A stretch of 64,000 nt of DNA, taken from contig JAYJMM010000038.1 of the NCBI GenBank assembly GCA_037349105.1, positions 1,984,001 through 2,048,000 of the forward strand, read 5' to 3'. Shown one piece after another: positions 406 through 62,540 of the stretch. Made by a program: the position numbers and the translations under genes. The stretch's first letter is position 1. The number at the start of each line of letters is the position of its first letter. The notes beneath the pieces are model-generated. The model saw only the letters and a program-made list of their open reading frames with translations, was not told the origin of the DNA and searched no databases. This DNA comes from Limnomonas spitsbergensis (lineage: Eukaryota; Chlorophyta; Chlorophyceae; Chlamydomonadales).

Positions 406-3400
406 CTGTGACTGCGACATGCCCCCGTATGGACGCTTCCCGGTGTACAGCTCCCACAGGAGGACGCCAAACGAGTACACCTACGATCCACGGTCACAGG
501 AGGCAGCGGATCGCGCGCAAGACACCTCAGCAGTGGACATAGGCAGGCCTTTTCTCATTATAGGGGGCCAGGATTTCAGCTCAGACCATGGCGATGCAAC
601 AAACGATTTGATGAGCTTCTTCTTTGGTTCATGTACTACAATTTAGGCTCACTTTCTACAATCTAGGTAGGAAGATGCAATGAAAAGGTCTCCCTGAATG
701 CATTTAGATGAGATCACTGGCGTCCAGATTTAATGCTTGTGGATCAACAGCATTTTTTGTTTTCAGGGTCCATCAGGTACAAGTCAGTTAAGTCTCAGCT
801 TGCCGCCAAGGAAGTCTGGTGCAGCCAGCCCTGTTTTATCGACAGCCGGCCGTGATAGATCAAGGTTTGGTCACCAGCGGCCCCGAGGTGGATTCCCGGC
901 AGCCTGTAAAATATGGTCTTAAGCGCAGCGTCAAGATCAGCAGGACTCCCCACCTCCCCTGGATCAGCAGGACCTCATGCCCCGGATCAGGGGGAGTCTG
1001 TTCCCCGGATAAGCAGGACTTTGTTTCCTAGATCAACAGCATTCTGTTCCCCAGATCAGCAGAACCATGTTATTTAGATCAGCAAAACTCACGTCAGCTG
1101 CCTTGGACAGGATGCCGTTCATCAGCAGCTCCGGAGCCTGAACGCGAAAGGGCACCACGACATTTGAATTTGAATTAAAAACAATTTACCACTTACAGCC
1201 CTCTACGAGGAAGCTAGCAAAAACAAATTGTACTATTTCTTGCTTTGGTGCCCTGCTTCGGTGTGAGCAGCCCAGAAACAGAGGAACTGAACCTTGTCAA
1301 TCTGTAATCCACGAAAGTGAATCCTGACCCCCCTATCAGGACTCACTGTGTGGGAGATGGCTGAACCCCCTATCAGGACTCACTGTGTGGGAGGTGGCTG
1401 ACCCCCCTATCAGGACTCACTGTGTGGGAGATGGCTGAACCCCCTATCAGGACTCACTGTGTGGGAGGTGGCTGACCCCCCTATCGATCTCACTGTGTGG
1501 GAGGTGGCTGACCCCCCTATCAGGACTCACTGTGTGGGAGATGGCTGAACCCCCTATCAGGACTCACTGTGTGGGAGATGGCTGACCCCCCTATCAGGAC
1601 TCACTGTGTGGGAGATGGCCGAACCCCCTATCAGGACTCACTGTGTGGGAGGTGGCTGACCCCCCTATCAGGACTCACTGTGTGGGAGATGGCTGAACCC
1701 CCTATCAGGACTCACTGTGTGGGAGGTGGCTGACCCCCCTATCAGGACTCACTGTGTGGGAGATGGCCGAACCCCCTATCAGGACTCACTGTGTGGGAGA
1801 TGGCTGAACCCCCTATCAGGACTCACTGTGTGGGAGATGGCTGAACCCCCTATCAGGACTCACTGTGTGGGAGATGGCCGAACCCCCTATCAGGACTCAC
1901 TGTGTGGTAGATGGCTGAACCCCCTATCAGGACTCACTGTGTGGGAGGTGGCTGACCCCCCTATCAGGACTTACTGTGTGGGAGATGGCTGACCCCCTAT
2001 CAGGACTCACTGTGTGGGAGGTGGCTGACCCCCCTATCGATCTCACTGTGTGGGAGGTGGCTGACCCCCCTATCAGGACTCACTGTGTGGGAGATGGCAC
2101 CGTGGGTCTTTGTCTTGATGTCTTGGGTTTGAATCACCCTCGTAAACCCGAAATCAGCCACCTGGAACGATTGTGCAGACGAGGTGGCAGGGATTTGAAG
2201 GGAGGGCACATTTGCAGATGCCAAGGTAGATGACCACAAATCGCAGAGCTGCATGCGCCCTGGCTTCAAGAATTAAAAGGAACGTAAAACCGTATGACAT
2301 GTGAAACAACATGCAGTACGTCTTATAATAAACCACGGCATGCTTCTGTGCCACCATGCGGCCTCAGCAAACCCCATTCTGATCAGGTTGAACGCAGGTA
2401 CGATGCTCCCCCTCACAATGACACAATGGATTTTCAACCAGCGACTGCAAGAGCCTGGCATGGCACACCACCACTCAGTATGGACACAGCTTTGCAAACA
2501 AAGGGCACGGCGTCCCCCTGAGACGGATGCCAGCCAGACATGACACACCAGTGCATCACCGCTTTGCACACGCAGCCATCCAATCAGTCCCCAGAGCCAG
2601 TGATTATCAAGTCATGGCTCCGCAACAGTCTAGCTTCACTTTATCTGCCTCAAGGCCTTCGGTCAGAGGCCTCATGCAAGGCCTGCTGTGGTATAGGCTT
2701 TGCATTGCCACCGAGGCATCTGGCGCCAGATGCCTCGGTGGCATTGCAAAGCCTATACCACAACAAGGCCAGCCATGTTGCGTGGGGCAGTCACAGCCTT
2801 AGATCACCTGCCGAAAGTCGGTCAAGGTTTGGCCCCAATCTGGCTTTTGGCGGCAGTAGGGCGGCCTGCTACTGGTGGCCAGAGAAGAAACACTGCCTTA
2901 GGCCAAATCTAAACAAAAAACATCCCAAAAGCAAATGCCCATCTTCCCATTCCCCACCCAATGCACACCTTGCAGCGCCCTAGGACTCCTCCCCTTCCCA
3001 CACCAGACCCATACAGTTCACACTTCATTCCCTGCCAGGCCCCGGCTCTGCAACAATGGTAGAGATGGCAGCAGCAGATTGCCACACGCGCATCCGCACC
3101 TCGCTGTGAGAGCCATCCCTCGTACCAGGCGTCAAGAAAGGTCCCCGACCATCCCCTGCCAGCTGATACAACCAGGCCCTTCCCATACAAAGTCCCACCC
3201 CGTACAGTCTGAGGATTCACAACACCATCAGCGTTACATCTTGTTCAGGGCTGGGTGATCCACCCCAGACTGTACCCCCCAACCCCTTAACCCTTAACCC
3301 CAGACTGTACCACACCAGACAGATAAATCAAGCCCGGAGTGGCGGGTGATCCACCCCAGACTGGAAAGGTTTAAGCCCGGACTGCCGAAATGGCGGCCGC

Positions 3401-6400: not shown

Positions 6401-9400
6401 AGCCGTCGTCAAGCCGCTCCACTGCCCTACGAGTGCGATGGCATGCACCCCGCTGAAGATGGGTTTGCAATACCTATGGGAGGCTCTTTTCGTACGCCTG
6501 ATCCCCTTGATTCTCCTAGAACTCGTTATGCATGAATGAAAATATGTAAATGAAACTGATCAGCAGAACTTCACGGCCTAGCACTGACTGTCCGCGACCC
6601 TGCCGCACACAGCCCTCAGTGCTGAAGTGCGTGCCACACACCCTTGGGGGGCCGCCAGGCGGCCATGACTGAGCCAATGGGAACCGATAACCTTGCCTGG
6701 CCTACGGCCAATGGCCTTGGCAGCAGGGCATGCTGCACCAGGCCCCCACAGCCGTGGGCCATATGCAGTTTAATTGTATGTGAAGCGCATAAGATGAACA
6801 ATATTGAGCAAAGAAGCTCAGGAGCTGGACCCCCTCCTCCTCTCACCTCTGAGAGCAACGCAGGTGTCACGCAAGTTGTGGTTGAGGTGAGGTGTGTGAT
6901 GAGGCGTACCCATCGAATGCGGTCAGTACCGAAAAGAGAAAAACATGTGAGGCGGGGGGGGTAAAGAGGCAGACACGGGTTAGTGCCACACATGTAGGAA
7001 ATGCATTAGCCTGGGGTGTAGAAGTAATTTGAGCGAAGGATTAACTCCACCTGTTTGAACTAAATAATGGTACCATCAAATCATGCCACGGTACAATCAA
7101 TGATGGAGGTAAAAAGGGGTTCATAATCAGTGCTGTGCCCATTACGGTCCTTACGGTGGCTGAATTACGAAGCTGAGTTTCAGTCACCGTAATTTCAAGC
7201 CAAATTCAGCTACTTTTACCAGTAAGGGACCGTAATTACCAGCACAGTGCAATGACACAGCACAGTTCATGATACTCAGGGGTCAGAGCCCTCAGAGGAG
7301 GGTTGGCAGGCATAAACTTTCCAGTGTGGCTCTACCTGTCGGGTGCCTGTTGCTTGTTATGAGTGTGCCAAGGATCTGTTTCGTTTGCACATCAGGATTG
7401 GGTGGAGCTGGACCCAACTCTGTTAAAGCTAATATAAGTGGTGTTTGCATCTGGGCCTGCCGGGAGCCGAGATTTCGAAAATTGGGACAGGCCCGGATGC
7501 AAATATAACAGATATTAGCTAACAGGCGCGCTCCCTGCCCATCCCACCCATTTCACCTGTACACCCGGCCGAACGAGCCGTAGCCCAGCATCGGGCCGAG
7601 GGTGACGTCCGAGAACGCTACGCGATTGTCCTTCACGACGGTGAACGTGCTGGCCTCCCCCGATTCGGTCACCGAGGGCGAGCCCAGCGCCTCGCGCAGC
7701 GTCGCGTAGTAGTAGCACGGCCCGCCGTCCTTGTGCCCGGCTTGGTTGATCGTGGCTGGAACCGCAATCTTGGGCATCAGGTTGTCAATGGTGCTGGTGT
7801 CAGCTGAGCGGAATTGGAGCTTGAGCAGGCTGGCACCGTCAGCCTGCTTGCTCCGCACCGTGAGATTGAAGTTCTGCTTCGAGGCTATCGCAGCTGAGCA
7901 CGCTTCGAGGGTCTTGTTCTGGTCTAGAGACGGCACCTGTGTGCATGTGTGTGTGTGGGGGGGGTCTAATTACACCGAAATTTTATAACCAGAAATTGTA
8001 ACTTGATCAGGCTGGAGTTATAACCATAAACCCTCACCTGGTCAGACCATAGCATTAACCCTTGCCCCTAGCCTCAGCAGACCAGAGTCCAGAGTCTACA
8101 CCCCTCAACCCTTTGCATGCATGCATGCATGCAAGTTGCAGTAGCTTGCTGAAGAGAAAGAACAACACTGCAATTCTCCAGACAGGATGAGGTGATTCGG
8201 AAACAAGTCAGATTGTTCACAATCCATCCGCACCGTTTCCTTTTCCAGGTCTGGCGGTCAGACCCGTGCCTCACAGAGGGTGCCCTTCCCCACCGCATAG
8301 CGATCTTAAATCCAAGGCAGACCAGCTCCGTCTTTTATCCCGGCGGATATCATGGCCTACCCCTTACTCGCCACACACTTGCCCCAGACCTACCCAGTCC
8401 TTACCAGAAACATGTCCCAGAAGTTCATGGGCGTGTCGCTGGTCTTGCTCATGCCAGTCTGCGCACCCCATGCGTCGTTCGTGAACACCACCGTCCAGAC
8501 TGCCTGGGAGATATCCACCATCATGACAGCCTCACTACAGGGGAAGAGGAGGGTTTGGTGTTCAGGGTTCAGGGTTTAGGGAGTAGACTGCCTGGGAGAT
8601 ATCCACCATCATGACAGCCTCACTGCAGGGGAAGAGGAGGGTTTGGTGTTCGGGGTTCAGGGTTTAGGGAGTAGACTGCCTGGGAGATATCCACCATCAT
8701 GACAGCCTCACTGCAGGGGAGGAGGAGGGTTTGGTGTTCGGGGTTCAGGGTTTAGGGAGTAGACTGCCTGGGAGATATCCACCATCATGACAGCCTCACT
8801 GCAGGGGAAGAGGAGGGTTTGGTGTTCAGGGTTCAGGGTTTAGGGAGTAGACTGCCTGGGAGATATCCACCATCATGACAGCCTCACTGCAGGGGAAGAG
8901 GAGGGTTTGGTGTTGTGTTCAGGGTTCAGGGAGCAGGCTACCTGGGAGATGTCCACCATCATGACGCTCCAGTGATGCTGACCCTGTCGCACTGGTCCTA
9001 CCCCCCCCCCTCCCCCTCCTGGGTGCTCCCCTGTTGCACCCCTTGTTCCTCTATCCATCTTTATTTACCCCTGTTGTGCTGACCCTGATATGCTGACCCC
9101 TGTTATGCTGCCTCTTGTACGCTACCCCCACCCCCTTGTTGTACCCCTGCTGCGCTGAGCGAAACGCTGCCCATGTTTTACACTCCTGATACCCCCTCCA
9201 CCTCCCCATGTGAAAAACTCGCCTCGTCATACCCACATCCCTCAAAAGGTATGCCTTATGAGTTATGACCTTAGCCCCACTCAGCTTCTCCTCCTCCTAA
9301 TACCCCTCCACCCCACCCCTGTGCCGAGCTCACCTTGTCATACCCACATCCCTCAAAAAGTAAGCCTTATGACCTCATCCCCACTCAGCTTCTCCTCCGG

Positions 9401-12400
9401 ATACCCCCCCCCTCCCCCTGTGCCAGGCTCACCTTGTCAAGCCCAAATCTCTTAACATGTCTGCCTTATGACCTCATCCCCAGGCAGCTTCTCCTCCGGA
9501 TACCCCCCCCCTCCCTCCCTGTGCCAAATCACCTCGTCATGCCATCCCTCAATATACCTCCCTTAATATGAATGCAGCCTTATTACCAAATCCCCACGCA
9601 TCTGCCCCTGCACCAGATACCCCCTGCTGTGCCCAGCCCACCTTGTCATGCCCATCGCCCTCAAAATGTTTGCCTTATGACCTCAGCCCCACTCAGCTAC
9701 CCCCCCCTCCAGCCACACCCCTGTTGTGCCCAGCCCACCTCATCATGCCCATCGCCCTTGAAATGTTTGCCTCCTGACCTCAGCCCCACTCAGCCCCTCC
9801 CCCCTCCAGCCACCCCCCTGTTGAGCTCAGCCCACCTCATCACGCCCACCGCCCTTGAAATGTTTGCCTTATGACCTTAGCCCCACTCAGCCCCTCCCCC
9901 CTCCAGCCACCCCCCTGTTGTGCTCAGCCCACCTCATCACGCCCACCGCCCTTGAAATGTTTGCCTTATGACCTTAGCCCCCGTCAGCTCCTCCCCCCTA
10001 TTTCACCCTTCCAGCCACCCCCCTGTTGTGCTCAGCCCACCTCGTCATGCCCACCGCCCTCACAATGTTTGCCTTATGACCTTAGCCCCCGTCAGCTCCT
10101 CCCCCCTCCAGCCACCCCCCTGTTGTGCCCAGCCCACCTCATCATGCCCACCGCCCTCAACACATGCGCCTTGTCCTTGCTCAGCTGCTCGCCCTCCTCA
10201 TGCATCGCCTCCATCTTGATGTCCCGCTCGATCTGTCGCACGACCATCTCTCCAAAGTTGGACAACATCATGCAGGACTGAGCGCTAAACGTGACTGGCT
10301 TGCGGTCAATCACACACCTAGGCAAGCGCAGGGGGGGGGGGCGATAGGTCAGCGTAACTTGTAGGGTGATTCAGCTACAATTCAGCTACGGAGGGGGCTG
10401 ATCAGCAAGATATACTGCTTGGGTCGCCGCTTGTAGGCTGGTCAAGGTTTGGTCCCCACCGGCCCAGTGGTGGCAGCCTGACCATTGCTCCCCTTACCCT
10501 GGTCTGGTGCGCAGTTCCCTTACCCTGGTCTGGTGCCACTTCCCTTACCCTGGTCTGGTGCCACTTCCCTTACCCTGGTCTAGTGCCACTTCCCTTACCC
10601 TGGTCTGGTGCCACTTCCCTTACCCTGGTCTGGTGCCACTTCCCTTACCCTGGTCTGGTGCCACTTCCCTTACCCTGGTCTGGTGCGCATTTCCCTTACC
10701 CTGGTCTGGTGCCACTTCCCTTACCCTGGTCTGGTGCGCAGTTCCCTTACCCTGGTCTAGTGCGCATTTCCCTTACCCTGGTCTGGTGCGCAGTTCCCTT
10801 ACCCTGGTCTGGTGCGCAGTTCCCTTACCCTGGTCTGGTGCCACTTCCCTTACCCTGGTCTGGAGCGCATTTCCCTTACCCTGGTCTAGTGCGCAGTTCC
10901 CTTACCCTGGTCTGGTGCGCAGTTCCCTTACCCTGGTCTGGTGCGCATTTCCCTTACCCTGGTCTGGTGCGCAGTTCCCTTACCCTGGTCTGGTGCGCAT
11001 TTCCCTTACCCTGGTCTGGTGCGCAGTTCCCTTACCCTGGTCTAGTGCGCAGTTCCCTTACCCTGGTCTGGTGCGCATTTCCCTTACCCTGGTCTGGTGC
11101 CACTTCCCTTACCCTGGTCTGGTGCGCAGTTCCCTTACCCTGGTCTGGTGCGCAGTTCCCTTACCCCGGTCTGGTGCGCAGTTCCCTTACCCTGGTCTGG
11201 TGCGCAGTTCCCTTACCCTGGTCTGGTGCCACTTCCCTTACCCTGGTCTGGAGCGCATTTCCCTTACCCTGGTCTGGTGCGCAGTTCCCTTACCCTGGTC
11301 TGGTGCCACTTCCCTTACCCTGGTCTGGTGCGCAGTTCCCTTACCCTGGTCTAGTGCGCATTTCCCTTACCCTGGTCTGGTGCGCAGTTCCCTTACCCTG
11401 GTCTGGTGCGCATTTCCCTTACCCTGGTCTGGTGCGCAGTTCCCTTACCCTGGTCTGGTGCGCATTTCCCTTACCCTGGTCTGGTGCGCAGTTCCCTTAC
11501 CCTGGTCTGGTGCGCAGTTCCCTTACCCTGGTCTGGTGCGCATTTCCCTTACCCTGGTCTGGTGCCACTTCCCTTACCCTGGTCTGGTGCCACTTCCCTT
11601 ACCCTGGTCTGGTGCGCAGTTCCCTTACCCTGGTCTGGTGCGCATTTCCCTTACCCTGGTCTGGTGCGCAGTTCCCTTACCCTGGTCTGGTGCGCATTTC
11701 CCTTACCCTGGTCTGGTGCGCAGTTCCCTTACCCTGGTCTAGTGCGCAGTTCCCTTACCCTGGTCTGGTGCGCATTTCCCTTACCCTGGTCTGGTGCCAC
11801 TTCCCTTACCCTGGTCTGGTGCGCAGTTCCCTTACCCTGGTCTGGTGCGCAGTTCCCTTACCCTGGTCTGGTGCGCAGTTCCCTTACCCTGGTCTGGTGC
11901 GCAGTTCCCTTACCCTGGTCTGGTGCCACTTCCCTTACCCTGGTCTGGAGCGCATTTCCCTTACCCTGGTCTGGTGCGCAGTTCCCTTACCCTGGTCTGG
12001 TGCCACTTCCCTTACCCTGGTCTGGTGCGCAGTTCCCTTACCCTGGTCTAGTGCGCATTTCCCTTACCCTGGTCTGGTGCGCAGTTCCCTTACCCTGCTC
12101 TGGTGCGCATTTCCCTTACCCTGGTCTGGTGCCACTTCCCTTACCCTGGTCTGGTGCGCATTTCCCTTACCCTGGTCTGGTGCTCAGTTCCCTTACCCTG
12201 GTCTGGTGCGCAGATCCCTTATCCTGGTCTGGTGCAACTTCCCTTACCCTGGTCTGGTGCGCATTTCCCTTACCCTGGTCTGGTGCGCAGTTCCCTTACC
12301 CTGGTCTGGTGCCACTTCCCTTACCCTGGTCTGGTGCGCAGTTCCCTTACCATGGTCTAGTGCGCAGTTCCCTTACCCTGGTCTGGTGCGCAGTTCCCTT

Positions 12401-15400
12401 ACCCTGGTCTGGTGCGCATTTCCCTTACCCTGCTCTGGTGCGCATTTCCCTTACCCTGGTCTGGTGCCACATCCCTTACCCTGGTCTGGTGCGCATTTCC
12501 CTTACCCTGGTCTGGTGCGCAGTTCCCTTACCCTGGTCTGGTGCGCAGATCCCTTATCCTGGTCTGGTGCAACTTCCCTTACCCTGGTCTGGTGCGCATT
12601 TCCCTTACCCTGGTCTGGTGCGCAGTTCCCTTACCCTGGTCTGGTGCCACTTCCCTTACCCTGGTCTGGTGCGCAGTTCCCTTACCCTGGTCTAGTGCGC
12701 AGTTCCCTTACCCTGGTCTGGTGCGCAGTTCCCTTACCCTGGTCTGGTGCGCAGTTCCCTTACCCTGGTCTGGTGCGCAGTTCCCTTACCCTGGTCTGGT
12801 GCCACTTCCCTTACCCTGGTCTGGTGCGCAGTTCCCTTACCCTGGTCTAGTGCGCAGTTCCCTTACCCTGGTCTGGTGCGCAGTTCCCTTACCCTGGTCT
12901 GGTGCGCAGTTCCCTTACCCTGGTCTGGTGCCACATCCCTTACCCTGGTCTGGTGCGCATTTCCCTTACCCTGGTCTGGTGCGCAGTTCCCTTACCCTGG
13001 TCTGGTGCGCAGTTCCCTTACCCTGGTCTGGTGCGCAGTTCCCTTACCCTGGTCTGGTGCCACTTCCCTTACCCTGGTCTGGAGCGCATTTCCCTTACCC
13101 TGGTCTGGTGCGCAGTTCCCTTACCCTGGTCTGGTGCCACTTCCCTTACCCTGGTCTGGTGCGCAGTTCCCTTACCCTGGTCTAGTGCGCATTTCCCTTA
13201 CCCTGGTCTGGTGCGCAGTTCCCTTACCCTGGTCTGGTGCGCATTTCCCTTACCCTGGTCTGGTGCGCAGTTCCCTTACCCTGGTCTGGTGCGCATTTCC
13301 CTTACCCTGGTCTGGTGCGCAGTTCCCTTACCCTGGTCTGGTGCGCAGTTCCCTTACCCTGGTCTGGTGCGCATTTCCCTTACCCTGGTCTGGTGCCACT
13401 TCCCTTACCCTGGTCTGGTGCCACTTCCCTTACCCTGGTCTGGTGCGCAGTTCCCTTACCCTGGTCTGGTGCGCATTTCCCTTACCCTGGTCTGGTGCGC
13501 AGTTCCCTTACCCTGGTCTGGTGCGCATTTCCCTTACCCTGGTCTGGTGCGCAGTTCCCTTACCCTGGTCTAGTGCGCAGTTCCCTTACCCTGGTCTGGT
13601 GCGCATTTCCCTTACCCTGGTCTGGTGCCACTTCCCTTACCCTGGTCTGGTGCGCAGTTCCCTTACCCTGGTCTGGTGCGCAGTTCCCTTACCCTGGTCT
13701 GGTGCGCAGTTCCCTTACCCTGGTCTGGTGCGCAGTTCCCTTACCCTGGTCTGGTGCCACTTCCCTTACCCTGGTCTGGAGCGCATTTCCCTTACCCTGG
13801 TCTGGTGCGCAGTTCCCTTACCCTGGTCTGGTGCCACTTCCCTTACCCTGGTCTGGTGCGCAGTTCCCTTACCCTGGTCTAGTGCGCATTTCCCTTACCC
13901 TGGTCTGGTGCGCAGTTCCCTTACCCTGCTCTGGTGCGCATTTCCCTTACCCTGGTCTGGTGCCACATCCCTTACCCTGGTCTGGTGCGCATTTCCCTTA
14001 CCCTGGTCTGGTGCGCAGTTCCCTTACCCTGGTCTGGTGCGCAGATCCCTTATCCTGGTCTGGTGCAACTTCCCTTACCCTGGTCTGGTGCGCATTTCCC
14101 TTACCCTGGTCTGGTGCGCAGTTCCCTTACCCTGGTCTGGTGCCACTTCCCTTACCCTGGTCTGGTGCGCAGTTCCCTTACCCTGGTCTAGTGCGCAGTT
14201 CCCTTACCCTGGTCTGGTGCGCAGTTCCCTTACCCTGGTCTGGTGCGCATTTCCCTTACCCTGCTCTGGTGCGCATTTCCCTTACCCTGGTCTGGTGCCA
14301 CATCCCTTACCCTGGTCTGGTGCGCATTTCCCTTACCCTGGTCTGGTGCGCAGTTCCCTTACCCTGGTCTGGTGCGCAGATCCCTTATCCTGGTCTGGTG
14401 CAACTTCCCTTACCCTGGTCTGGTGCCACTTCCCTTACCCTGGTCTGGTGCGCAGTTCCCTTACCCTGGTCTAGTGCGCAGTTCCCTTACCCTGGTCTGG
14501 TGCGCAGTTCCCTTACCCTGGTCTGGTGCGCAGTTCCCTTACCCTGGTCTGGTGCGCAGTTCCCTTACCCTGGTCTGGTGCCACTTCCCTTACCCTGGTC
14601 TGGTGCGCAGTTCCCTTACCCTGGTCTGGTGCGCAGTTCCCTTACCCTGGTCTGGTGCGCAGTTCCCTTACCCTGGTCTGGTGCGCAGTTCCCTTACCCT
14701 GGTCTGGTGCCACATCCCTTACCCTGGTCTGGTGCGCATTTCCCTTACCCTGGTCTGGTGCGCATTTCCCTTACCCTGGTCTGGTGCGCAGTTCCCTTAC
14801 CCTGGTCTGGTGCAACTTCCCTTACCCTGGTCTGGTGCGCATTTCCCTTACCCTGGTCTGGTGCGCAGTTCCCTTACCCTGGTCTGGTGCCACTTCCCTC
14901 ACCCTGGTCTGGTGCGCAGTTCCCTTACCCTGGTCTAGTGCGCAGTTCCCTTACCCTGGTCTGGTACGCAGTTCCCTTACCCTGGTCTGGTGCGCAGTTC
15001 CCTTACCCTGGTCTGGTGCGCAGTTCCCTTACCCTGGTCTGGTGCGCAGTTCCCTTACCCTGGTCTGGTGCGCAGTTCCCTTACCCTGGTCTGGTGCCAC
15101 TTCCCTTACCCTGGTCTGGAGCGCATTTCCCTTACCCTGGTCTGGTGCGCATTTCCCTTACCCTGGTCTGGTGCCACTTCCCTTACCCTGGTCTGGTGCG
15201 CAGTTCCCTTACCCTGGTCTAGTGCGCATTTCCCTTACCCTGGTCTGGTGCGCAGTTCCCTTACCCTGGTCTGGTGCGCAGTTCCCTTACCCTGGTCTGG
15301 TGCCACATCCCTTACCCTGGTCTGGTGCGCATTTCCCTTACCCTGGTCTGGTGCGCAGTTCCCTTACCCTGGTCTGGTGCGCAGTTCCCTTACCCTGGTC

Positions 15401-18400
15401 TGGTGCAACTTCCCTTACCCTGGTCTGGTGCGCATTTCCCTTACCCTGGTCTGGTGTGCAGTTCCCTTACCCTGGTCTGGTGCCACTTCCCTTACCCTGG
15501 TCTGGTGCGCAGTTCCCTTACCCTGGTCTAGTGCGCAGTTCCCTTACCCTGGTCTGGTGCGCAGTTCCCTTACCCTGGTCTGGTGCGCAGTTCCCTTACC
15601 CTGGTCTGGTGCGCAGTTCCCTTACCCTGGTCTGGTGCGCAGTTCCCTTACCCTGGTCTGGTGCGCAGTTCCCTTACCCTGGTCTGGTGCGCAGTTCCCT
15701 TACCCTGGTCTGGTGCGCATTTCCCTTACCCTGGTCTGGTGCGCAGTTCCCTTACCCTGGTCTGGTGCGTAGTTCCCTTACCCTGGTCTGGTGCCACTTC
15801 CCTTACCCTGGTCTGGTGCGCACTTCCCTTACCCTGGTCTGGTGCGTAGTTCCCTTACCCTGGTCTGGTGCGCAGTTCCCTTACCCTGGTCTGGTGTGCA
15901 GTTCCCTTACCCTGGTCTGGTGCCACTTCCCTTACCCTGGTCTGGTGCGCAGTTCCCTTACCCTGGTCTGGTGCCACTTCCCTTACCCTGGTCTGGTGCG
16001 CAGTTCCCTTGACCTGGTATAATGCACAGTTCAAATAACATACACATACTGGATTACAGAACCCAGCTGGGATATGCGAACGCACTCGAGCAGCGAGCAC
16101 ATTGTAAAAAAGAAGGATGCCGTTCAAGGTTTGGGACTAACATGACTCACAGCGATCCGTAGCGATGCCCATTGGATCCTACGAGGGGGGTGCCTACGGG
16201 GCAGGGGGGGAGGGAGGACAGATGGGAACAAGCAGCCAGGCACATCTCCCCCTAAGATTGCAGAGTCTTCAGGGTCGAGCAACCCAAAGCGCAACAGCAC
16301 CATGCCCAGGCAATCCAAAATGATACATGCAGATGAGAGACCGGAAAACCCAGCTTCAGCAGCGTTTATTCTACACCAGGAAGACCAGTAGTGTGCCTCA
16401 TCACACCCATGGAAGCGCACGCGGCCTTGATTTAAAAATGTAGGATTAAGGTTCAGCAGTACGCCCTGAGAACCCTGCAGGGCCCCCTCTCACCCTCATG
16501 GAGGCATCCCAGTGAGAATACTCAAGAATTTGCCCTTGAATGCCCTAAACCCTAGATTGCCTCCTCACCCGCATAGAAGCGTATATGAGGGAATCCGATC
16601 ACCAGCGGGTTGGAGCAGAAGCGGGCGTCCTCCAGCGCATTCTCCACCACCAGCACCGTTGGGCAGTGCGGCAGCAGAGTCCTGAGAGGAGGGAAGGGCC
16701 AGAGGAACCAGGCTAGCTTAGGGTTTAGGGTTTTGTTTTTAGGGTTTTGGTTGGTCCAGGATTAAGGCTTTCAAACCATGGTCCAGGATTAAGGCTAGCT
16801 TAGGGTTTAAGGTATTCTTTAGGCTTTAGGGTAGGTGCAGGACAAAGGCTTTCAAACCATTTAAAAGAGTCCTAGCAGGCAGGCAAGGCAGTACCAGGCT
16901 TTGAGAGCGGGCGCTGGGGGGTCTAGGTTCTAGGTTTGAAGAGCGGGTGCATAGGGTTTTAGGCTAAGGCTCAAAAAGGGAATCGAGCGCAGGGAATGTA
17001 AGCAAAATATGCAGGCACTGCTCCCTCCCCTTCACACATACACCCTCCTCCCTCCCCTTCACACATACACCCTCCTCCCTCCCCTTCACACATACACCCT
17101 CCTCCCTCCCCTTCACACATACACCCTCCTCCCTCCCCTTTACACATACACCCTCCTCCCTCCCCTTCACACATACACCCTCCTCCCTCCCCTTCACACA
17201 TACACCCTCCTCCCTCCCCTTTACACATACACCCTCCTCCCTCCCCTTCACACATACACCCTCCTCCCTCCCCTTCACACATACACCCTCCTCCCTCCCC
17301 TTCACACATACACCCTCCTCCCTCCCCTTCACACATACACCGTCCTCCCTCCCCTTCACACATACACCCTCCTCCCTCCCCTTCACACATACACCCTCCT
17401 CCCTCCCCTTCATACATACACCCTCCTCCCTCCCCTTCACACATACACCCTGCTCCCTCCCCTTTACACATACACCCTCCTCCCTCCCCTTCACACACAC
17501 ACCCTCCTCCCTCCCCTTCACACATACACCCTCCTCTCTCCCCTTTACACATACACCCTCCTCCCTCCCCTTTACACATACACCCTCCTCCCTCCCCTTC
17601 ACATTTCATCTGACTCACCATGCGCAGAATGAAGACTTTCGGCTGGTTTCTGTGATCTCCTTAGGCAGGCCCTGCTGGGACTTAAACCACTGCCGGTCAA
17701 TGTCCACGAGGGAGACCAGACAGATTGGCACCTGTGAGGAAAGGGCGGCAGAGGAGAGGCAAATAGGGCAGGGGGGTGGGGAGGCAACAGGAAGGCAGGG
17801 AGGGCAATGTCCACGAGGGAGACCAGACAGATTGGCACCTGTGAGGAAAGGGCGGCAGAGGAGAGGCAAATAGGGCAGGGGGGTGGGGAGGCAACAGGAA
17901 GGCAGGGAGGGCAATGTCCACGAGGGAGACCAGACAGATTGGCACCTGTGAGGAAAGGGCGGCAGAGGAGAGGCAAATAGGGCAGGGGGGTGGGGAGGCA
18001 ACAGGAAGGCAGGGAGGGCAATGTCCACGAGGGAGACCAGACAGATTGGCACCTGTGAGGAAAGGGCGGCAGAGGAGAGGCAAATAGGGCAGGGGGGTGG
18101 GGAGGCAACAGGAAGGCAGGGAGGGCAATGTCCACGAGGGAGACCAGACAGATTGGCACCTGTGAGGAAAGGGCGGCAGAGGAGAGGCAAATAGGGCAGG
18201 GGGGTGGGGAGGCAACAGGAAGGCAGGGAGGGCAATGTCCACGAGGGAGACCAGACAGATTGGCACCTGTGAGGAAAGGGCGGCAGAGGAGAGGCAAATA
18301 GGGCAGGGGGGTGGGGAGGCAACAGGAAGGCAGGGAGGGCAATGTCCACGAGGGAGACCAGACAGATTGGCACCTGTGAGGAAAGGGCGGCAGAGGAGAG

Positions 18401-43900: not shown

Positions 43901-46900
43901 CTCGTTATGGCCCTGGCTTTGAGGCCCTTTTTGGCAGCATACCCCCCATCCTCGTTATGGCCCTGGCTTTGAAGCGCTTTTTGGCAGCATACCCCCCATC
44001 CTCGTTATGGCCCTGGCTTTGAAGCGCTTTTTGGCAGCATACCCCCCATCCTCGTTATGGCCCTGGCTTTGAAGCGCTTTTTGGCAGCATACCCCCCATC
44101 CTCGTTATGGCCCAGGCTTTGAAGTACTTTTTGGCAGCATACCCCCATCCTCGTTATGGCCCTGGCTTTGAAGTACTTTTTGGCAGCATACTCCCATCCT
44201 CGTTATGGCCCTGGCTTTGAAGCGCTTTTTGGCAGCATACCCCCCATCCTCGTTATGGCCCTGGCTTTGAAGCGCTTTTTGGCAGCATACCCCCATCCTC
44301 GTTATGGCCCTGGCTTTGAAGCGCTTTTTGGCAGCTTACTCCCATTCTCGTTATGGCCCTGGCTTTGAAGTGCTTTTTGGCAGCATACCCCCATCCTCGT
44401 TATGGCCCTGGCTTTGAGGCCCTTTTTGGCAGCATACCCCCCATCCTCGTTATGGCCCTGGCTTTGAAGCGCTTTTTGGCAGCATACCCCCATCCTCGTT
44501 ATGGCCCTGGCTTTGAAGCGCTTTTTGGCAGCATACCCCCCATCCTCGTTATGGCCCTGGCTTTGAGGCCCTTTTTGGCAGCATACCCCCATCCTCGTTA
44601 TGGCCCTGGCTTTGAAGCGCCTCTTGGCAGCATACCCCCCATCCTCGTTATGGCCCTGGCTTTGAAGCGCTTTTTGGCAGCATACCCCCATTCTCGTTAT
44701 GTCCCTGGCTTTGAAGCGCTTTTTGGCAGCATACCCCCATCCTCGTTATGGCCCTGGCTTTGAAGCGCTTTTTGGCAGCATACCCCCATCCTCGTTATGG
44801 CCCTGGCTTTGAAGCGCTTTTTGGCAGCATACCCCCCATCCTCGTTATGGCCCTGGCTTTGAAGCGCTTTTTGGCAGCATACCCCCCATCCTCGTTATGG
44901 CCCTGGCTTTGAGGCCCTTTTTGGCAGCATACCCCCCATCCTCGTTATGGCCCTGGCTTTGAGGCCCTTTTTGGCAGCATACCCCCCATCCTCGTTATGG
45001 CCCTGGCTTTGAAGCGCTTTTTGGCAGCTTACTCCCATTCTCGTTATGGCCCTGGCTTTGAAGCGCTTTTTGGCAGCATACCCCCATCCTCGTTATGGCC
45101 CTGGCTTTGAGGCCCTTTTTGGCAGCATACCCCCCATCCTCGTTATGGCCCTGGCTTTGAGGCCCTTTTTGGCAGCATACCCCCCATCCTCGTTATGGCC
45201 CTGGCTTTGAAGCGCTTTTTGGCAGCATACCCCCCATCCTCGTTATGGCCCTGGCTTTGAAGCGCTTTTTGGCAGCATACCCCCATCCTCGTTATGGCCC
45301 TGGCTTTGAAGCGCTTTTGGCAGCATACCCCCCATCCTCGTTATTATGGCCCTGGCTTTGAAGCGCTTTTTGGCAGCATACCCCCCATCCTCGTTATGGC
45401 CCTGGCTTTGAGGCCCTTTTTGGCAGCATACCCCCCATCCTCGTTATGGCCCTGGCTTTGAAGCGCTTTTTGGCAGCATACCCCCCATCCTCGTTATGGC
45501 CCTGGCTTTGAAGCGCTTTTTGGCAGCATACCCCCCATCCTCGTTATGGCCCAGGCTTTGAAGTACTTTTTGGCAGCATACCCCCATCCTCGTTATGGCC
45601 CTGGCTTTGAAGTACTTTTTGGCAGCATACTCCCATCCTCGTTATGGCCCTGGCTTTGAAGCGCTTTTTGGCAGCATACCCCCCATCCTCGTTATGGCCC
45701 TGGCTTTGAAGCGCTTTTTGGCAGCATACCCCCATCCTCGTTATGGCCCTGGCTTTGAAGCGCTTTTTGGCAGCTTACTCCCATTCTCGTTATGGCCCTG
45801 GCTTTGAAGTGCTTTTTGGCAGCATACCCCCATCCTCGTTATGGCCCTGGCTTTGAGGCCCTTTTTGGCAGCATACCCCCCATCCTCGTTATGGCCCTGG
45901 CTTTGAAGCGCTTTTTGGCAGCATACCCCCATCCTCGTTATGGCCCTGGCTTTGAAGCGCTTTTGGCAGCATACCCCCCATCCTCGTTATTATGGCCCTG
46001 GCTTTGAAGCGCTTTTTGGCAGCATACCCCCCATCCTCGTTATGGCCCTGGCTTTGAGGCCCTTTTTGGCAGCATACCCCCCATCCTCGTTATGGCCCTG
46101 GCTTTGAAGCGCTTTTTGGCAGCATACCCCCCATCCTCGTTATGGCCCTGGCTTTGAAGCGCTTTTTGGCAGCATACCCCCCATCCTCGTTATGGCCCTG
46201 GCTTTGAAGCGCTTTTTGGCAGCATACCCCCCATCCTCGTTATGGCCCTGGCTTTGAAGTACTTTTTGGCAGCATACCCCCATCCTCGTTATGGCCCTGG
46301 CTTTGAAGCGCCTCTTGGCAGCATACCCCCCATCCTCGTTATGGCCCTGGCTTTGAAGCGCTTTTTGGCAGCATACCCCCATTCTCGTTATGGCCCTGGC
46401 TTTGAAGCGCTTTTTGGCAGCATACCCCCATCCTCGTTATGGCCCTGGCTTTGAAGCGCTTTTTGGCAGCATACCCCCATCCTCGTTATGGCCCTGGCTT
46501 TGAAGCCCTTTTTGGCAGCATACCCCCCATCCTCGTTATGGCCCTGGCTTTGAGGCCCTTTTTGGCAGCATACCCCCCATCCTCGTTATGGCCCTGGCTT
46601 TGAGGCCCTTTTTGGCAGCATACCCCCCATCCTCGTTATGGCCCTGGCTTTGAGGCCCTTTTTGGCAGCATACCCCCCATCCTCGTTATGGCCCTGGCTT
46701 TGAAGCGCTTTTTGGCAGCTTACTCCCATTCTCGTTATGGCCCTGGCTTTGAAGCGCTTTTTGGCAGCATACCCCCATCCTCGTTATGGCCCTGGCTTTG
46801 AGGCCCTTTTTGGCAGCATACCCCCCATCCTCGTTATGGCCCTGGCTTTGAAGCGCCTCTTGGCAGCATACCCCCCATCCTCGTTATGGCCCTGGCTTTG

Positions 46901-49900
46901 AAGCGCTTTTTGGCAGCTTACTCCCATTCTCGTTATGGCCCTGGCTTTGAAGCGCTTTTTGGCAGCATACCCCCATCCTCGTTATGGCCCTGGCTTTGAA
47001 GCGCTTTTGGCAGCATACCCCCCATCCTCGTTATTATGGCCCTGGCTTTGAAGCGCTTTTTGGCAGCATACCCCCCATCCTCGTTATGGCCCTGGCTTTG
47101 AGGCCCTTTTTGGCAGCATACCCCCCATCCTCGTTATGGCCCTGGCTTTGAAGCGCTTTTTGGCAGCATACCCCCCATCCTCGTTATGGCCCTGGCTTTG
47201 AAGCGCTTTTTGGCAGCATACCCCCCATCCTCGTTATGGCCCTGGCTTTGAAGCGCTTTTTGGCAGCATACCCCCCATCCTCGTTATGGCCCTGGCTTTG
47301 AAGTACTTTTTGGCAGCATACCCCCATCCTCGTTATGGCCCTGGCTTTGAAGTACTTTTTGGCAGCATACTCCCATCCTCGTTATGGCCCTGGCTTTGAA
47401 GCGCTTTTTGGCAGCATACCCCCCATCCTCGTTATGGCCCTGGCTTTGAAGCGCTTTTTGGCAGCATACCCCCATCCTCGTTATGGCCCTGGCTTTGAAG
47501 CGCTTTTTGGCAGCATACTCCCATTCTCGTTATGGCCCTGGCTTTGAAGCGCTTTTTGGCAGCATACCCCCATCCTCGTTATGGCCCTGGCTTTGAGGCC
47601 CTTTTTGGCAGCATACCCCCCATCCTCGTTATGGCCCTGGCTTTGAAGCGCCTCTTGGCAGCATACCCCCATCCTCGTTATGGCCCTGGCTTTGAAGCGC
47701 TTTTTGGCAGCTTACTCCCATTCTCGTTATGGCCCTGGCTTTGAAGCGCTTTTTGGCAGCATACCCCCCATCCTCGTTATGGCCCTGGCTTTGAAATGCT
47801 TTTGGCAGCATACCCCCCATCCTCGTTATGGCCCTGGCTTTGAAGCGCTTTTTGGCAGCATACCCCCCATCCTCGTTATGGCCCTGGCTTTGAGGCCCTT
47901 TTTGGCAGCATACCCCCCATCCTCGTTATGGCCCTGGCTTTGAAGCGCCTCTTGGCAGCATACCCCCCATCCTCGTTATGGCCCTGGCTTTGAAGCGCTT
48001 TTTGGCAGCATACCCCCATTCTCGTTATGGCCCTGGCTTTGAAGCGCTTTTTGGCAGCATACCCCCATCCTCGTTATGGCCCTGGCTTTGAAGCGCTTTT
48101 TGGCAGCATACCCCCATCCTCGTTATGGCCCTGGCTTTGAAGCCCTTTTTGGCAGCATACCCCCCATCCTCGTTATGGCCCTGGCTTTGAAGCGCTTTTT
48201 GGCAGCATACCCCCCATCCTCGTTATGGCCCTGGCTTTGAGGCCCTTTTTGGCAGCATACCCCCCATCCTCGTTATGGCCCTGGCTTTGAGGCCCTTTTT
48301 GGCAGCATACCCCCCATCCTCGTTATGGCCCTGGCTTTGAAGCGCTTTTTGGCAGCTTACTCCCATTCTCGTTATGGCCCTGGCTTTGAAGCGCTTTTTG
48401 GCAGCATACCCCCATCCTCGTTATGGCCCTGGCTTTGAGGCCCTTTTTGGCAGCATACCCCCCATCCTCGTTATGGCCCTGGCTTTGAAGCGCTTTTTGG
48501 CAGCATACCCCCCATCCTCGTTATGGCCCTGGCTTTGAAGCGCTTTTTGGCAGCTTACTCCCATTCTCGTTATGGCCCTGGCTTTGAAGCGCTTTTTGGC
48601 AGCATACCCCCATCCTCGTTATGGCCCTGGCTTTGAAGCGCTTTTGGCAGCATACCCCCCATCCTCGTTATTATGGCCCTGGCTTTGAAGCGCTTTTTGG
48701 CAGCATACCCCCCATCCTCGTTATGGCCCTGGCTTTGAGGCCCTTTTTGGCAGCATACCCCCCATCCTCGTTATGGCCCTGGCTTTGAAGCGCTTTTTGG
48801 CAGCATACCCCCCATCCTCGTTATGGCCCTGGCTTTGAAGCGCTTTTTGGCAGCATACCCCCCATCCTCGTTATGGCCCTGGCTTTGAAGCGCTTTTTGG
48901 CAGCATACCCCCCATCCTCGTTATGGCCCTGGCTTTGAAGTACTTTTTGGCAGCATACCCCCATCCTCGTTATGGCCCTGGCTTTGAAGTACTTTTTGGC
49001 AGCATACTCCCATCCTCGTTATGGCCCTGGCTTTGAAGCGCTTTTTGGCAGCATACCCCCCATCCTTGTTATGGCCCTGGCTTTGAAGCGCTTTTTTGCA
49101 GCATACCCCCATCCTCGTTATGGCCCTGGCTTTGAAGCGCTTTTTGGCAGCATACCCCCCATCCTCGTTATGGCCCTGGCTTTGAAGCGCTTTTTGGCAG
49201 CATACCCCCCATCCTCGTTATGGCCCTGGCTTTGAAGCGCTTTTTGGCAGCATACCCCCCATCCTCGTTATGGCCCTGGCTTTGAAGCGCTTTTTGGCAG
49301 CATACCCCCCATCCTCGTTATGGCCCTGGCTTTGAAGTACTTTTTGGCAGCATACCCCCATCCTCGTTATGGCCCTGGCTTTGAAGTACTTTTTGGCAGC
49401 ATACTCCCATCCTCGTTATGGCCCTGGCTTTGAAGCGCTTTTTGGCAGCATACCCCCCATCCTTGTTATGGCCCTGGCTTTGAAGCGCTTTTTTGCAGCA
49501 TACCCCCATCCTCGTTATGGCCCTGGCTTTGAAGCGCTTTTTGGCAGCATACCCCCCATCCTCGTTATGGCCCTGGCTTTGAAGCGCTTTTTGGCAGCAT
49601 ACCCCCCATCCTCGTTATGGCCCTGGCTTTGAAGCGCTTTTTGGCAGCGTACCCCCATCCTTGTTATGGCCCTGGCTTTGAAGCGCTTTTTGGCAGCATG
49701 CCCCCATCCTCATTATGGACCTGGCTTTGAAGCTTTTTTTGGCAGCATACCCCCATCCTCGTTATGGCCCTGGCTTTGAAGCGCTTTTTGGCAGCATACC
49801 CCCCATCCTCGTTATGGCCCTGGCTTTGAAGCGTTTTTTGGCAGCATACCCCCCATCCTCGTTATAGCCCTGGCTTTGAAGCGCTTTTTGGCAGCATACC

Positions 49901-52900
49901 CCCCATCCTCGTTATGGCCCTGGCTTTGAAGCGCTTTTTGGCAGCATACCCCCCATCCTCGTTATGGCCCTGGCTTTGAAGCGCTTTTTGGCAGCATACC
50001 CCCATCCTCGTTATGGCCCTGGCTTTGAAGCGCTTTTTGGCAGCTTACTCCCATCCTCGTTTTGGCCCTGGCTTTAAAGCGCTTTTTGGCAGCATACCCC
50101 CCATCCTCATTATGGCCCTGGCTTTGAAGTACTTTTTGGCAGCATACTCCCATCCTCGTTATGGCCCTGGCTTTGAAGCGCTTTTTGGCAGCATACCCCC
50201 CATCCTTGTTATGGCCCTGGCTTTGAAGCGCTTTTTTGCAGCATACCCCCATCCTCGTTATGGCCCTGGCTTTGAAGCGCTTTTTGGCAGCATACCCCCC
50301 ATCCTCGTTATGGCCCTGGCTTTGAAGCGCTTTTTGGCAGCATACTCCCATCCTCGTTATGGCCCTGGCTTTGAAGCGCTTTTTGGCAGCGTACCCCCAT
50401 CCTTGTTATGGCCCTGGCTTTGAAGCGCTTTTTGGCAGCATGCCCCCATCCTCATTATGGACCTGGCTTTGAAGCTTTTTTTGGCAGCATACCCCCATCC
50501 TCGTTATGGCCCTGGCTTTGAAGCGCTTTTTGGCAGCATACCCTCCATCCTCGTTATGGCCCTGGCTTTGAAGCGCTTTTTTGCAGCATACCCCCATCCT
50601 CGTTATGGCCCTGGCTTTGAAGCGCTTTTTGGCAGCATACCCCCCATCCTCGTTATGGCCCTGGCTTTGAAGCGCTTTTTGGCAGCATACTCCCATCCTC
50701 GTTATGGCCCTGGCTTTGAAGCGCTTTTTGGCAGCGTACCCCCATCCTCGTTATGGCCCTGGCTTTGAAGCGCTTTTTGGCAGCATGCCCCCATCCTCAT
50801 TATGGACCTGGCTTTGAAGCGCTTTTTGGCAGCATACCCCCATCCTCGTTATGGCCCTGGCTTTGAAGCGCTTTTTGGCAGCATACCCCCCATCCTCGTT
50901 ATGGCCCTGGCTTTGAAGCGTTTTTTGGCAGCATACCCCCCATCCTCGTTATAGCCCTGGCTTTGAAGCGCTTTTTGGCAGCATACCCCCCATCCTCGTT
51001 ATGGCCCTGGCTTTGAAGCGCTTTTTGGCAGCATACCCCCCATCCTCGTTATGGCCCTGGCTTTGAAGCGCTTTTTGGCAGCATACCCCCATCCTCGTTA
51101 TGGCCCTGGCTTTGAAGCGCTTTTTGGCAGCTTACTCCCATCCTCGTTTTGGCCCTGGCTTTAAAGCGCTTTTTGGCAGCATACCCCCATCCTCATTATG
51201 GCCCTGGCTTTGAAGCGCTTTTTGGCAGCATACCCCCCATCCTCGTTATGGCCCTGGCTTTGAAGCGCTTTTTGGCAGCATACTCCCATCCTCGTTATGG
51301 CCCTGGCTTTGAAGCGCTTTTTGGCAGCATACCCCCCATCCTCGTTATGGCCCTGGCTTTGAAGCGCTTTTTGGCAGCATACCCCCATCCTCATTATGGA
51401 CCTGGCTTTGAAGCGCTTTTTGGCAGCATACCCCCATCCTCGTTATGGCCCTGGCTTTGAAGCGCTTTTTGGCAGCATACCTCCCATCCTCGTTATGGCC
51501 CTGGCTTTGAAGCGCTTTTTGGCAGCATACCCCCATCCTCGTTAATACCCTTGGTGCAAGGGAAGAGACCAGAAGGAAAGCCTGTCCTATGGCTTTCCTT
51601 CTGTTCTCTCCCCTTGCACCATGGGTCCCTCCGCGGGACTTGGATTCCCCCATGTTTGAACTCGGGTTTTAAGTCGGGTAGGTGGCTAACACTGTCTATC
51701 GAAGGTTGCTCCAGGTTCAATTCAACCATGTTATGGCCTACAGCCGAGGTGTCTGTTACATCAGGCCCAGCTGCGTGGGCCACTGGCCATAGGCCAGTCA
51801 AGCAAGTTTACCCATAGGCAACTGACAGCTGACCACCGGCCGACAAAACGGAGCTTTTGTGTGGTATTAAATAAACAATATCTGATGTACAGGTAACCTG
51901 AAGTGCACTAAACGAAACACTGGCACACATACTCAATAGGGTCCACTTCATCTGTGCATCCCACGCATGCGGCGCAGGCAATGGTGACCGCTTCTTAACG
52001 GGCCAACAGCTGCACTATCCGCCCGTGCTCATCCGTCCCAACACCAGCGAGGAGGCTTGCCCCGACCTGCGCGCCGCCCCGCCGGCATTCGACGCCTGCA
52101 CCGTGCCGCTGGTGCTGTGGGCAAGGTGGCCGTACAACCTCGCAGAGGCTTTCGGGACAGTGTATGCGCGACTCCTCCGCGCATTCGAGTCGGGAGACGT
52201 GAGCAAGGAGCTTCTGCCCGTGCTGGCCACGCCACATGGCCTGCGTGCTCCAAAGTGCGCCGCGGGAGGGGAGCAGCCTTGCCGGCTCAGTCACGGGGCA
52301 TTCTAAGCGGCATACAGGCCCTGTTATGGGGGGCAGTACTAGCGGTACACCGACCCTGTCACAGGGAGCAGTACTAGAGGTACACTGACCCCATCAGAGG
52401 CGGTATAAATAGCAGAACAACGGGCTGGGCTGGCCTGCCTTGTCATCAGAGTTGTTTATCAGTAGGCCAGCTGGATCTGACTTCTGCCCCCACCACCAGC
52501 ACCACACTCAAATATCCTCACATCCACACGCACCATGACACTACCATGAAAACGCCATGAGCGCTCTAACCGCCTTGCCTAGAGATTTGCCTGCAGGTGG
52601 TCTGCAGCTCATGCATGTTTTTTATAACGTGGGTTTCTGCTCAGCATCATGGAGCTCGATTTTCAGCAAGAATTAGATAAAGCAGCCAGGCAAGAAATAA
52701 TGTAAGCTTTGAAACTATTTTCTAGGCTTGTCAGTCGAATATGCTTCCAGAGTCTCTGTCTTCTCCGTATGCACTGGGCAACTGAGTGCCTGCATCGTGC
52801 AGAGTTCCCCCCAACACCTTATATACCCTTATCCCTAATTTCTCCTCCCTGAGAGCACATGGCTATGAGGCTCAGCATTGCCTGCAACCTACTCAGCTCC

Positions 52901-56620: not shown

Positions 56621-56871
56621 CAGCATTCGAACACTGAAGGAGCCAGCTTAACCGGGGTAGGCAGGGGTGGGAGGCTCTGGTTTTTGTGGAAGATGCAGTT
56701 GCGTTTGTTGAAGGCTAGTCTCTTCAGGGGCAGGAGATACGGTTTGCCTGACCTTTTGGGTGTTGATGTTGTTTGGAAGGTGGACACGGTTTCCTTTCTT
56801 TCCTCTTGTGCCTTATCCCTTGAGTTGCTAGCAGACTTTTTGTTTGCCGACGTGGCCGAGCTTTATTGAAG

Positions 56872-57096: not shown

Positions 57097-57496
57097 AGGC
57101 AGCCACCTCCCCCACTTGAATGCAATAATTGACAGTCCGCCCTCTCATGAGGCTCCCAGCCGCACCACTTCTTTGCCCAGTTCTTTGACTGAGCCCGTAA
57201 TTGAAAGCAGTGCCAGCAAGCGCTGCGCTTGCTGAGACCTCTTGCCATGCTATGATTGATATGCCTGTGTATCCCGTATATGTTCAAATCTCACATGTTT
57301 TCAGGTCTTGAGGTATCAGCAGGTGCATGTGACGCGTTGGAGCAGTTCAATAAATAAATAAAAAGCAGAAACTGAGTCCGACACACTGTCATGCTACCGC
57401 CATACCATGCCAGATACACGGTCGCATGTTGTCCCCCGGCTTAGCAGTTAGCACTAGACAAGAAAATGGCATCTTTTCCAGGAAGCAGGGACAGCA

Positions 57497-62540: not shown

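What the first reader, a model, noticed from the sequence alone, without database searches (positions are those of the whole stretch)
1324..62066. Tandem repeats that repeatedly arise on splice junctions, in several genes
At least five arrays and one duplication have units that include a splice site, usually with 15-34 nt of the adjoining exon. They are at kinase intron 12 donor, kinase intron 6 donor and acceptor, kinase intron 2 acceptor, the 650-aa gene intron 2 donor, GT61-like intron 1 acceptor, and the exon 5 donor duplication. Random minisatellites would seldom straddle exon edges this often. It suggests a local process that duplicates DNA at exon-intron borders (for example breaks linked to R-loops or transcription), or selection keeping reserve splice sites. 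I know of no described system of this kind.
Basis: partly seen in the sequence, partly recalled or inferred. Interest (0 to 1): 0.92.

Follow-up and report, generated by a model that had tools for sequence, protein, structure and literature searches.

The report
Splice sites copied by tandem repeats
In this green alga, runs of repeated DNA fill the introns and sometimes run across the edge of an exon, leaving rows of spare-looking splice sites; they fall there nearly as often as chance placement predicts, at most a few times more often, so they look like tolerated by-products rather than a special system.

Summary
The observation largely holds. Chlamydomonas eustigma proteins confirm the exon joins behind six of the seven cited sites; the GT61 intron 1 acceptor is unresolved. 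Each confirmed repeat contains the splice site plus about 7-56 nt of exon.

That random arrays would seldom do this is not supported. Arrays cover a quarter of 264 kb of this genome (probably Limnomonas spitsbergensis). In 280 kb outside the window, 8-9 of 73-95 genic arrays span a junction against 4.6-6.8 expected from uniform placement (P 0.08-0.23; other versions of the count gave 0.02-0.14). About 9% of junctions lie inside a local repeat, as do 9-14% of intron-interior points.

A surplus remains. Arrays of three or more copies span junctions 2-4 times too often (post hoc split); two-copy duplications do not. Counting each array once, junctions exceed intron points 2.5-fold (1.9-3.4), part of which I ascribe, unmeasured, to detection bias.

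Best reading: random tandem duplication, removed from exons and harmless at junctions because the exon-proximal copy still works. Inner sites show no clear frame preservation, no consistent strand skew and borderline extra conservation. The decoys are a natural test of splice-site choice that long-read RNA could settle.

The parts
406..20747 (-). Protein kinase gene with a GAF region, 14 exons modelled; runs off the left window edge
   Evidence: Spliced model, GT-AG at each intron, frame kept; relatives incl. C. eustigma g3326, 62% identity
1324..2098 (-). Array at kinase intron 12 donor, 37 nt x 21; unit holds the exon tail ...CCCACACA and GTGAGT
   Evidence: TRF; exon 2084-2161; 20 of 20 inner copies examined keep GT; an exact 33-mer of the unit was found 4 times in the genome, all inside this array (that search skips very common words)
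8497..8965 (-). Array at kinase intron 6 acceptor, 88 nt x 5.4, 38 nt of exon 8405-8534
9183..10160 (-). Array at kinase intron 6 donor, ~97 nt units; 9620-10160 closer copies, 9183-9539 more diverged copies; 23 nt of exon 10138-10317
   Evidence: copy identity falls with distance from the exon, rho -0.83
10491..16032 (.). Intron-only array in kinase intron 5, 26 nt x 215
   Evidence: exon limits
17021..17603 (.). Intron-only array in kinase intron 3, 27 nt x 21.6, ends 15 nt from the donor
17698..19410 (-). Array at kinase intron 2 acceptor, 107 nt x 16, 34 nt of exon 17619-17731 plus about 73 nt of intron
   Evidence: 15 of 15 inner copies examined keep AG, divergence 0.7%
27684..27797 (-). 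Array at intron 2 donor of the ~650-aa gene, 27 nt x ~4, about 7 nt of exon 27791-27885
   Evidence: TRF 27684-27789; extension to 27797 read by eye; join confirmed by P0128
32244..32331 (+). Array near GT61-like intron 1 acceptor, 33 nt x 2.7; junction at 32323 unresolved
   Evidence: C. eustigma P0121 lacks the 15 residues this acceptor adds
32588..51544 (.). Intron-only array, 50 nt x 382, fills GT61-like intron 2 (32454-51977)
   Evidence: join confirmed by P0121
54744..54903 (+). Two-copy duplication, 81 nt, 56 nt of GT61-like exon 5 (54714-54799) plus its donor
   Evidence: join HW-YGID confirmed by P0121

Best explanation
Tandem duplication strikes this genome very often and roughly at random. 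Duplications inside exons are removed by selection. Duplications inside introns, or across an exon edge, are tolerated, because after a junction is duplicated the copy next to the exon still sits in its old place and the other copies are simply intron. Some then grow into long arrays. The spliceosome must pick the exon-proximal copy among nearly identical ones; with short exons and long introns this is what the exon-centred proximity rule predicts (smallest exon wins). Shown: array density, low array density in exons, position profile, joins implied by relatives. Inferred: that RNA uses the exon-proximal copy, that exon arrays are rare through selection, and that a constrained exon-side copy makes junction arrays easier to detect and perhaps longer lived, which would give the remaining surplus.
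For: Arrays cover 25.5% of 264 kb. Arrays per collapsed kb: intron 0.78, intergenic/unannotated 0.55, exon 0.11. Outside the window 8-9 of 73-95 genic arrays span a junction vs 4.6-6.8 expected (P 0.08-0.23), two-copy class 3 of 46-53 vs 2.7-3.8. Repeat coverage: 23/256 junctions vs 22-37/256 at points 10-600 nt into the intron; 9/256 at 30 nt and 4/248 at 40 nt into the exon. Joins without the arrays match relatives in the window and in CDPK, DYRK and MAP3K-like genes elsewhere. Exon-centred proximity rule: PMC9225289, passages. Unit length a multiple of three in 5 of 11.
Against: Counting each array once, 28 of 188 junctions (15%) have a nearby copy vs 5.9% of intron points, ratio 2.5, 95% interval 1.9-3.4; independent sequence alone 22 of 148 vs 5.5%, 2.7 (1.9-3.7) (before dropping one false exon 29 of 188, 2.7). 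Arrays of three or more copies: 9 of 39 vs 2.4 (P 0.0003). An 18-gene set including the window: 11 of 60 vs 5.4 (P 0.013). Other independent counts: 8/74 vs 3.8 (P 0.033) and 8/50 vs 3.6 (P 0.022) at exon threshold 8, 8/61 vs 3.6 (P 0.025; GC-matched 4.3, P 0.051). A laxer TRF setting: independent 16/127 vs 6.2 and 19/148 vs 8.2 GC-matched, P printed 0.000, though in the listing of all 21 several are short-unit repeats running into exons by more than a unit. The decay gradient expected of anchored arrays did not stand out from controls (mean rho -0.33 vs -0.24).
Confidence: 0.64

Rival explanations
1. A process tied to exon-intron borders (transcription, R-loops, splicing) duplicates or amplifies DNA there.
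For: Surplus of junction arrays with three or more copies; ratio 2.5 with each array counted once; two introns carry copies of both their ends: kinase intron 6 and a DYRK-like intron elsewhere; multi-copy genic arrays lean to G on the non-template strand, 20 of 39 vs 13 of 39 C-rich.
Against: No bias in two-copy events; junction arrays themselves have mixed skew, four positive and five negative; arrays also common in intergenic/unannotated DNA; no peak at the junction in raw repeat coverage.
Confidence: 0.16
2. Selection keeps the extra copies as reserve or alternative splice sites.
For: 72 of 72 inner copies in nine arrays keep GT or AG (permutation P 0.039); 88 of 98 copies vs 80.0 for neighbouring dinucleotides (P 0.048; one vote per junction P 0.033). 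The two tests share data.
Against: Extended splice site not more conserved (22 vs 23.5 differences, P 0.46; exon part 40 vs 52.7, P 0.08); the functional copy's own constraint gives one-sided divergence; no clear bias to frame-keeping unit lengths.
Confidence: 0.07
3. These are introns newly made from tandem duplication of exon pieces (Rogers model).
For: Units contain splice sites and exon sequence; such introns are documented elsewhere (PMC4974935, passages).
Against: Units are partly intronic; in intron 6 the donor and acceptor arrays are different sequences; the intron 2 donor lies 486 nt outside its array.
Confidence: 0.04
4. The surplus is an artefact of the gene models made here (missed short exons, array copies or array edges called exons).
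For: The gene finder misses short exons and expected counts vary with the exon threshold. It called one array copy in the CDPK gene an exon; relatives lack it. Three of eight independent junction arrays at threshold 5 (24671, 96778, 171128) lie in genes whose joins were not checked.
Against: The other five (three CDPK, one DYRK, one MAP3K-like) have joins that align without a gap to solved relatives once the false CDPK exon is left out; dropping that exon changes the counts little.
Confidence: 0.09

Closest known systems
Internal tandem repeats at exon-intron boundaries in human segmental duplications (2009, PMC2812944; 12 of 15 passages read)
   Same: Tandem repeats straddle exon-intron borders
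   Different: There, repeat number varies between paralogs, with RNA evidence for novel introns; here one genome, no RNA, and the intron looks older than the array
Human introns from tandem arrays (Zhuo et al. 2007; seen only as a reference in PMC2812944; content recalled)
   Same: Splice sites within tandem copies
   Different: As recalled, the intron arises from the array; here usually only one intron end lies in it
Intron gain by tandem duplication, incl. fission yeast 24-bp AGGT arrays (PMC4974935; passages read)
   Same: Multiple tandem copies with splice signals
   Different: Exonic source and new intron in the classic model; here mixed exon-intron units at an intron that seems to have been there already
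Dual-specific splice sites in tandem repeats, polyubiquitin (2024, PMC10809524; passages read)
   Same: Rows of near-identical splice sites in one transcript
   Different: There a site serves as donor and acceptor and the intron length is a multiple of the unit
Limnomonas spitsbergensis genome (PMC11228838; 12 of 17 passages read)
   Same: Very probably the same assembly
   Different: The passages shown do not discuss repeats at splice sites

Membership tests
Minisatellite (VNTR-type) tandem array | Head-to-tail copies of a 10-100+ nt unit | tested here: met
Minisatellite (VNTR-type) tandem array | Copy number varies between individuals | not testable with these tools
   one assembly only
Tandem repeats at exon-intron boundaries (PMC2812944 type) | Array straddles an exon-intron boundary | tested here: met
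   Six of seven cited sites
Tandem repeats at exon-intron boundaries (PMC2812944 type) | Alters splicing in transcripts | not testable with these tools
   no RNA data held
Intron gain by tandem duplication (Rogers model) | Both intron ends derive from copies of one exonic repeat | tested here: not met
   Kinase introns 2, 6, 12; other introns not examined for this
Dual-specific splice site array (UBC type) | Intron length is a multiple of the unit and both ends lie in the same array | tested here: not met
   Kinase introns 2, 6, 12, from coordinates
Introner-like element | Related copies dispersed through the genome as introns | tested here: inconclusive
   An exact 33-mer of the intron 12 unit was found only inside its own array; other units and inexact matches not searched

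The most novel reading that the evidence does not exclude
Initial duplications are random, but once a unit contains a splice junction it is amplified or retained several times more readily than an intron-only unit, because the exon-side copy is kept constant by selection and goes on seeding fresh copies (an anchored array). Introns would then lengthen from their ends, and genes would fill with perfect decoy splice sites that exon definition ignores.
Probability: 0.22. Interest if true: 0.68.

Novelty: new member of a known kind. Interest (0 to 1): 0.42.

Why it matters
Arrays with 20 near-identical donors (kinase intron 12) or 15 near-identical acceptors (kinase intron 2) beside the functional one are natural experiments in splice-site choice: sequence strength is held nearly equal and only position differs. 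The exon-centred proximity rule makes a sharp prediction (exon-proximal copy wins, less so where flanking introns are short) that long-read RNA from this alga could test. A true surplus at junctions would also point to a way introns lengthen.

Tried and rejected
Considered and rejected: intron gain by exonic duplication; UBC-type dual-specific splicing; a strict R-loop strand rule. A BLAST self-comparison for the position profile gave coverage that looked too low (9 of 256 junctions), which I put down, untested, to how BLAST reports overlapping tandem hits; replaced by a direct-offset scan. The decay-gradient test did not separate 9 junction arrays (of 12 tried, 3 with too few copies) from 19 control array ends. 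Reserve sites: borderline statistics with an ordinary explanation. In one search ten arrays were run; the row for 227684 used a wrong junction coordinate (core read TG, 0 of 3 copies); it is left out of the 72 of 72 but its columns stayed in the permutation test. My kinase exon 9 (6332-6473) is probably 18 nt short: the gene finder's 6314 end gives the HPNI motif seen in relatives; no array is affected. One gene-finder exon (313392-313436 of the concatenated sequence, L029) is an array copy that relatives lack; some searches were run with it in the models, and searches were repeated without it.

Rows dropped before counts: arrays with unit under 10, 12 or 15 nt or under 1.8 copies depending on the call; arrays wholly in exons; arrays not at least 80% inside one modelled intron unless they spanned its edge; introns flanked by exons under the stated score or length; the ~650-aa and GT61 sites are missing or incomplete in the gene-finder models and enter only.

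Full report
ORGANISM AND GENES. The window is C38:1984001-2048000 of an assembly of 260,226,709 bases in 124 contigs. The published Limnomonas spitsbergensis assembly has 260,248,090 bp, 124 contigs and a longest contig of 10.736 Mb (PMC11228838, passages); contig C41 here is 10,736,355 bases. The identification rests on those near-matches. The window holds, left to right, a protein kinase gene (minus), an EMC3 gene (plus; Pfam EMC3_TMCO1, E 1.3e-29), a ~650-aa gene (minus), a GT61-like glycosyltransferase gene (plus; relatives carry PF04577) and at least one further predicted gene (minus). The best relatives of three of them are C. eustigma g3326, g3324 and g3323, each listed with a longest contig of 868,677 bases, so gene order appears conserved.

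THE OBSERVATION. Spliced models keep GT-AG and frame. Aligned to five relatives, the kinase protein has no gap at the intron 2, 6 and 12 joins; the ~650-aa gene has none at its intron 2 join; GT61 has none at exon 5-6. Each confirmed unit contains the splice site and about 7 to 56 nt of exon.

HOW COMMON ARE ARRAYS. In 264 kb (200 kb to the left plus the window) arrays cover 25.5%. With 80 kb more, from eight other contigs at places with a kinase-domain match, arrays per kb, each array counted once, are 0.78 in introns, 0.55 in intergenic or unannotated DNA and 0.11 in exons. Further junction arrays exist outside the window: three in a CDPK gene, one in a MAP3K-like gene, and a DYRK-like intron with copies of both its ends. 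Alignment to solved relatives shows no gap at the CDPK joins carrying the first two arrays, at the DYRK join and at the MAP3K-like join; at the third CDPK array the gap-free join needs one gene-finder exon, itself an array copy, to be left out.

IS THE NUMBER SURPRISING. A gene finder trained on this genome gave introns. Under uniform placement of a unit-length duplication, exons excluded, the independent 280 kb has 9/95, 8/86 and 8/73 junction-spanning arrays vs 6.8, 5.4 and 4.6 expected at exon thresholds 2, 5 and 8 (P 0.23, 0.16, 0.08; unchanged without the false exon). A simpler form of the count gave 10/95 vs 6.7, 8/86 vs 5.2 and 8/74 vs 3.8 (P 0.12, 0.14, 0.033), and with units of 20 nt or more P 0.084, 0.100 and 0.022. 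An 18-gene set including the window gave 11/60 vs 5.4 (P 0.013), but the window was chosen for the pattern. GC-matched placement raises the expectation by about a fifth. A position profile over 256 junctions shows no peak: 23/256 junctions lie inside a local direct repeat, 22-37/256 of points 10-600 nt into the intron do, and 4/248 at 40 nt into the exon. That profile counts whole arrays, which favours intron points.

RESULTS AGAINST THE ORDINARY READING. If each array is counted once, 28 of 188 junctions (15%) have a nearby copy against 5.9% of intron points, ratio 2.5, interval 1.9-3.4; independent sequence alone 22 of 148 against 5.5%, ratio 2.7, 1.9-3.7 (before dropping the false exon: 29 of 188, 2.7, 1.9-3.5). 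Part should be detection bias, because at a junction one copy is held constant and divergence grows on one side only; I did not measure how much. TRF arrays of three or more copies: 9/39 vs 2.4 (P 0.0003), outside the window 5/26 vs 1.4 (P 0.008), and 5-6 vs 1.9-3.0 (P 0.03-0.07) in the gene-wise version. Two-copy arrays: 3/52 vs 3.1. A laxer TRF setting gave 21/153 vs 8.6 GC-matched, 16/127 vs 6.2 outside the window, P printed 0.000; several of the 21 are short-unit hits reaching more than a unit into exons. In six long units (88-207 nt) exon overlap is only 14-45 nt, which uniform placement would not favour; not formally tested.

TESTS OF FUNCTION. In nine arrays 72 of 72 inner copies keep GT or AG; permutation P 0.039; the extended site is not better kept (22 vs 23.5 differences). 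At 28 of 256 junctions a copy spanning the junction was found; 88 of those 98 copies keep the dinucleotide vs 80.0 for neighbours (P 0.048; one vote per junction P 0.033). Constraint on the functional copy would act in this direction. Unit length is a multiple of three in 5 of 11. Non-template GC skew of nine junction arrays: four positive, five negative; of 39 multi-copy genic arrays 20 are G-rich and 13 C-rich. Identity to the exon-side copy falls with distance in 7 of 9 junction arrays but also in 14 of 19 control array ends.

MECHANISM. After a duplication across a junction, the exon-side copy is unchanged and the rest is intron, so the event is as tolerable as one inside the intron (inference). 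The exon-side copy must then be chosen. Intron-centred proximity would favour the wrong copies; exon-centred proximity, reported for human exons between long introns (PMC9225289, passages), favours the right ones. That RNA uses them here is inferred from protein relatives, not seen.

LITERATURE. Repeats at exon-intron boundaries are known in human paralogs (PMC2812944), in intron gain by tandem duplication (PMC4974935) and in polyubiquitin (PMC10809524). The rows listed by my searches on repeats with splice sites, minisatellites, duplicated sites and algae show no title on such arrays in green algae; the lists of 35, 60 and 68 were capped, and the library holds open-licence papers only.

Noticed in passing
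window 32588-51544: One 50-nt minisatellite of about 382 copies makes up 97% of a 19.5-kb intron of the GT61-like gene; the flanking exons join in frame and match C. eustigma.
   Followed up: partly
window 28000-29011: 18-nt x 56 array whose plus-strand reading is (Gly-Ala-Lys-Gly-Ile-Pro)n by eye, collagen-like, inside an intron of the minus-strand ~650-aa gene; could be chance.
   Followed up: no
G000:C38:1816829-1829817 (L008-L009): Gene models with the same scores repeat at a spacing of 8152 bp; a second pair repeats at 3923 bp near 88-95 kb of the fetched 200 kb. Recent duplication or assembly effect.
   Followed up: no
L031 (G000:C41:7074001-7084000): DYRK-like intron carries an array of its donor end (45 nt x 10.6) and three diverged copies of its acceptor end that TRF did not report.
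   Followed up: partly
L029 (G000:C102:1876001-1886000), about 8.67 kb into the locus: In the CDPK gene a tandem copy of an exon end (127-nt unit) happens to have an AG before it and a GT after it and reads as a frame-keeping 15-residue exon that relatives lack; either a gene-finder error or a way for such arrays to make new exons.
   Followed up: partly
window 2680-2770: Near-perfect inverted repeat by eye in kinase intron 11 (around GCCACCGAGGCATCTGGCGCCAGATGCC).
   Followed up: no
window 32244-32331 and 32323: If the modelled GT61 acceptor beside the 33-nt repeats is real, the protein has 15 residues that C. eustigma lacks, a possible case of a repeat supplying a new splice site.
   Followed up: partly
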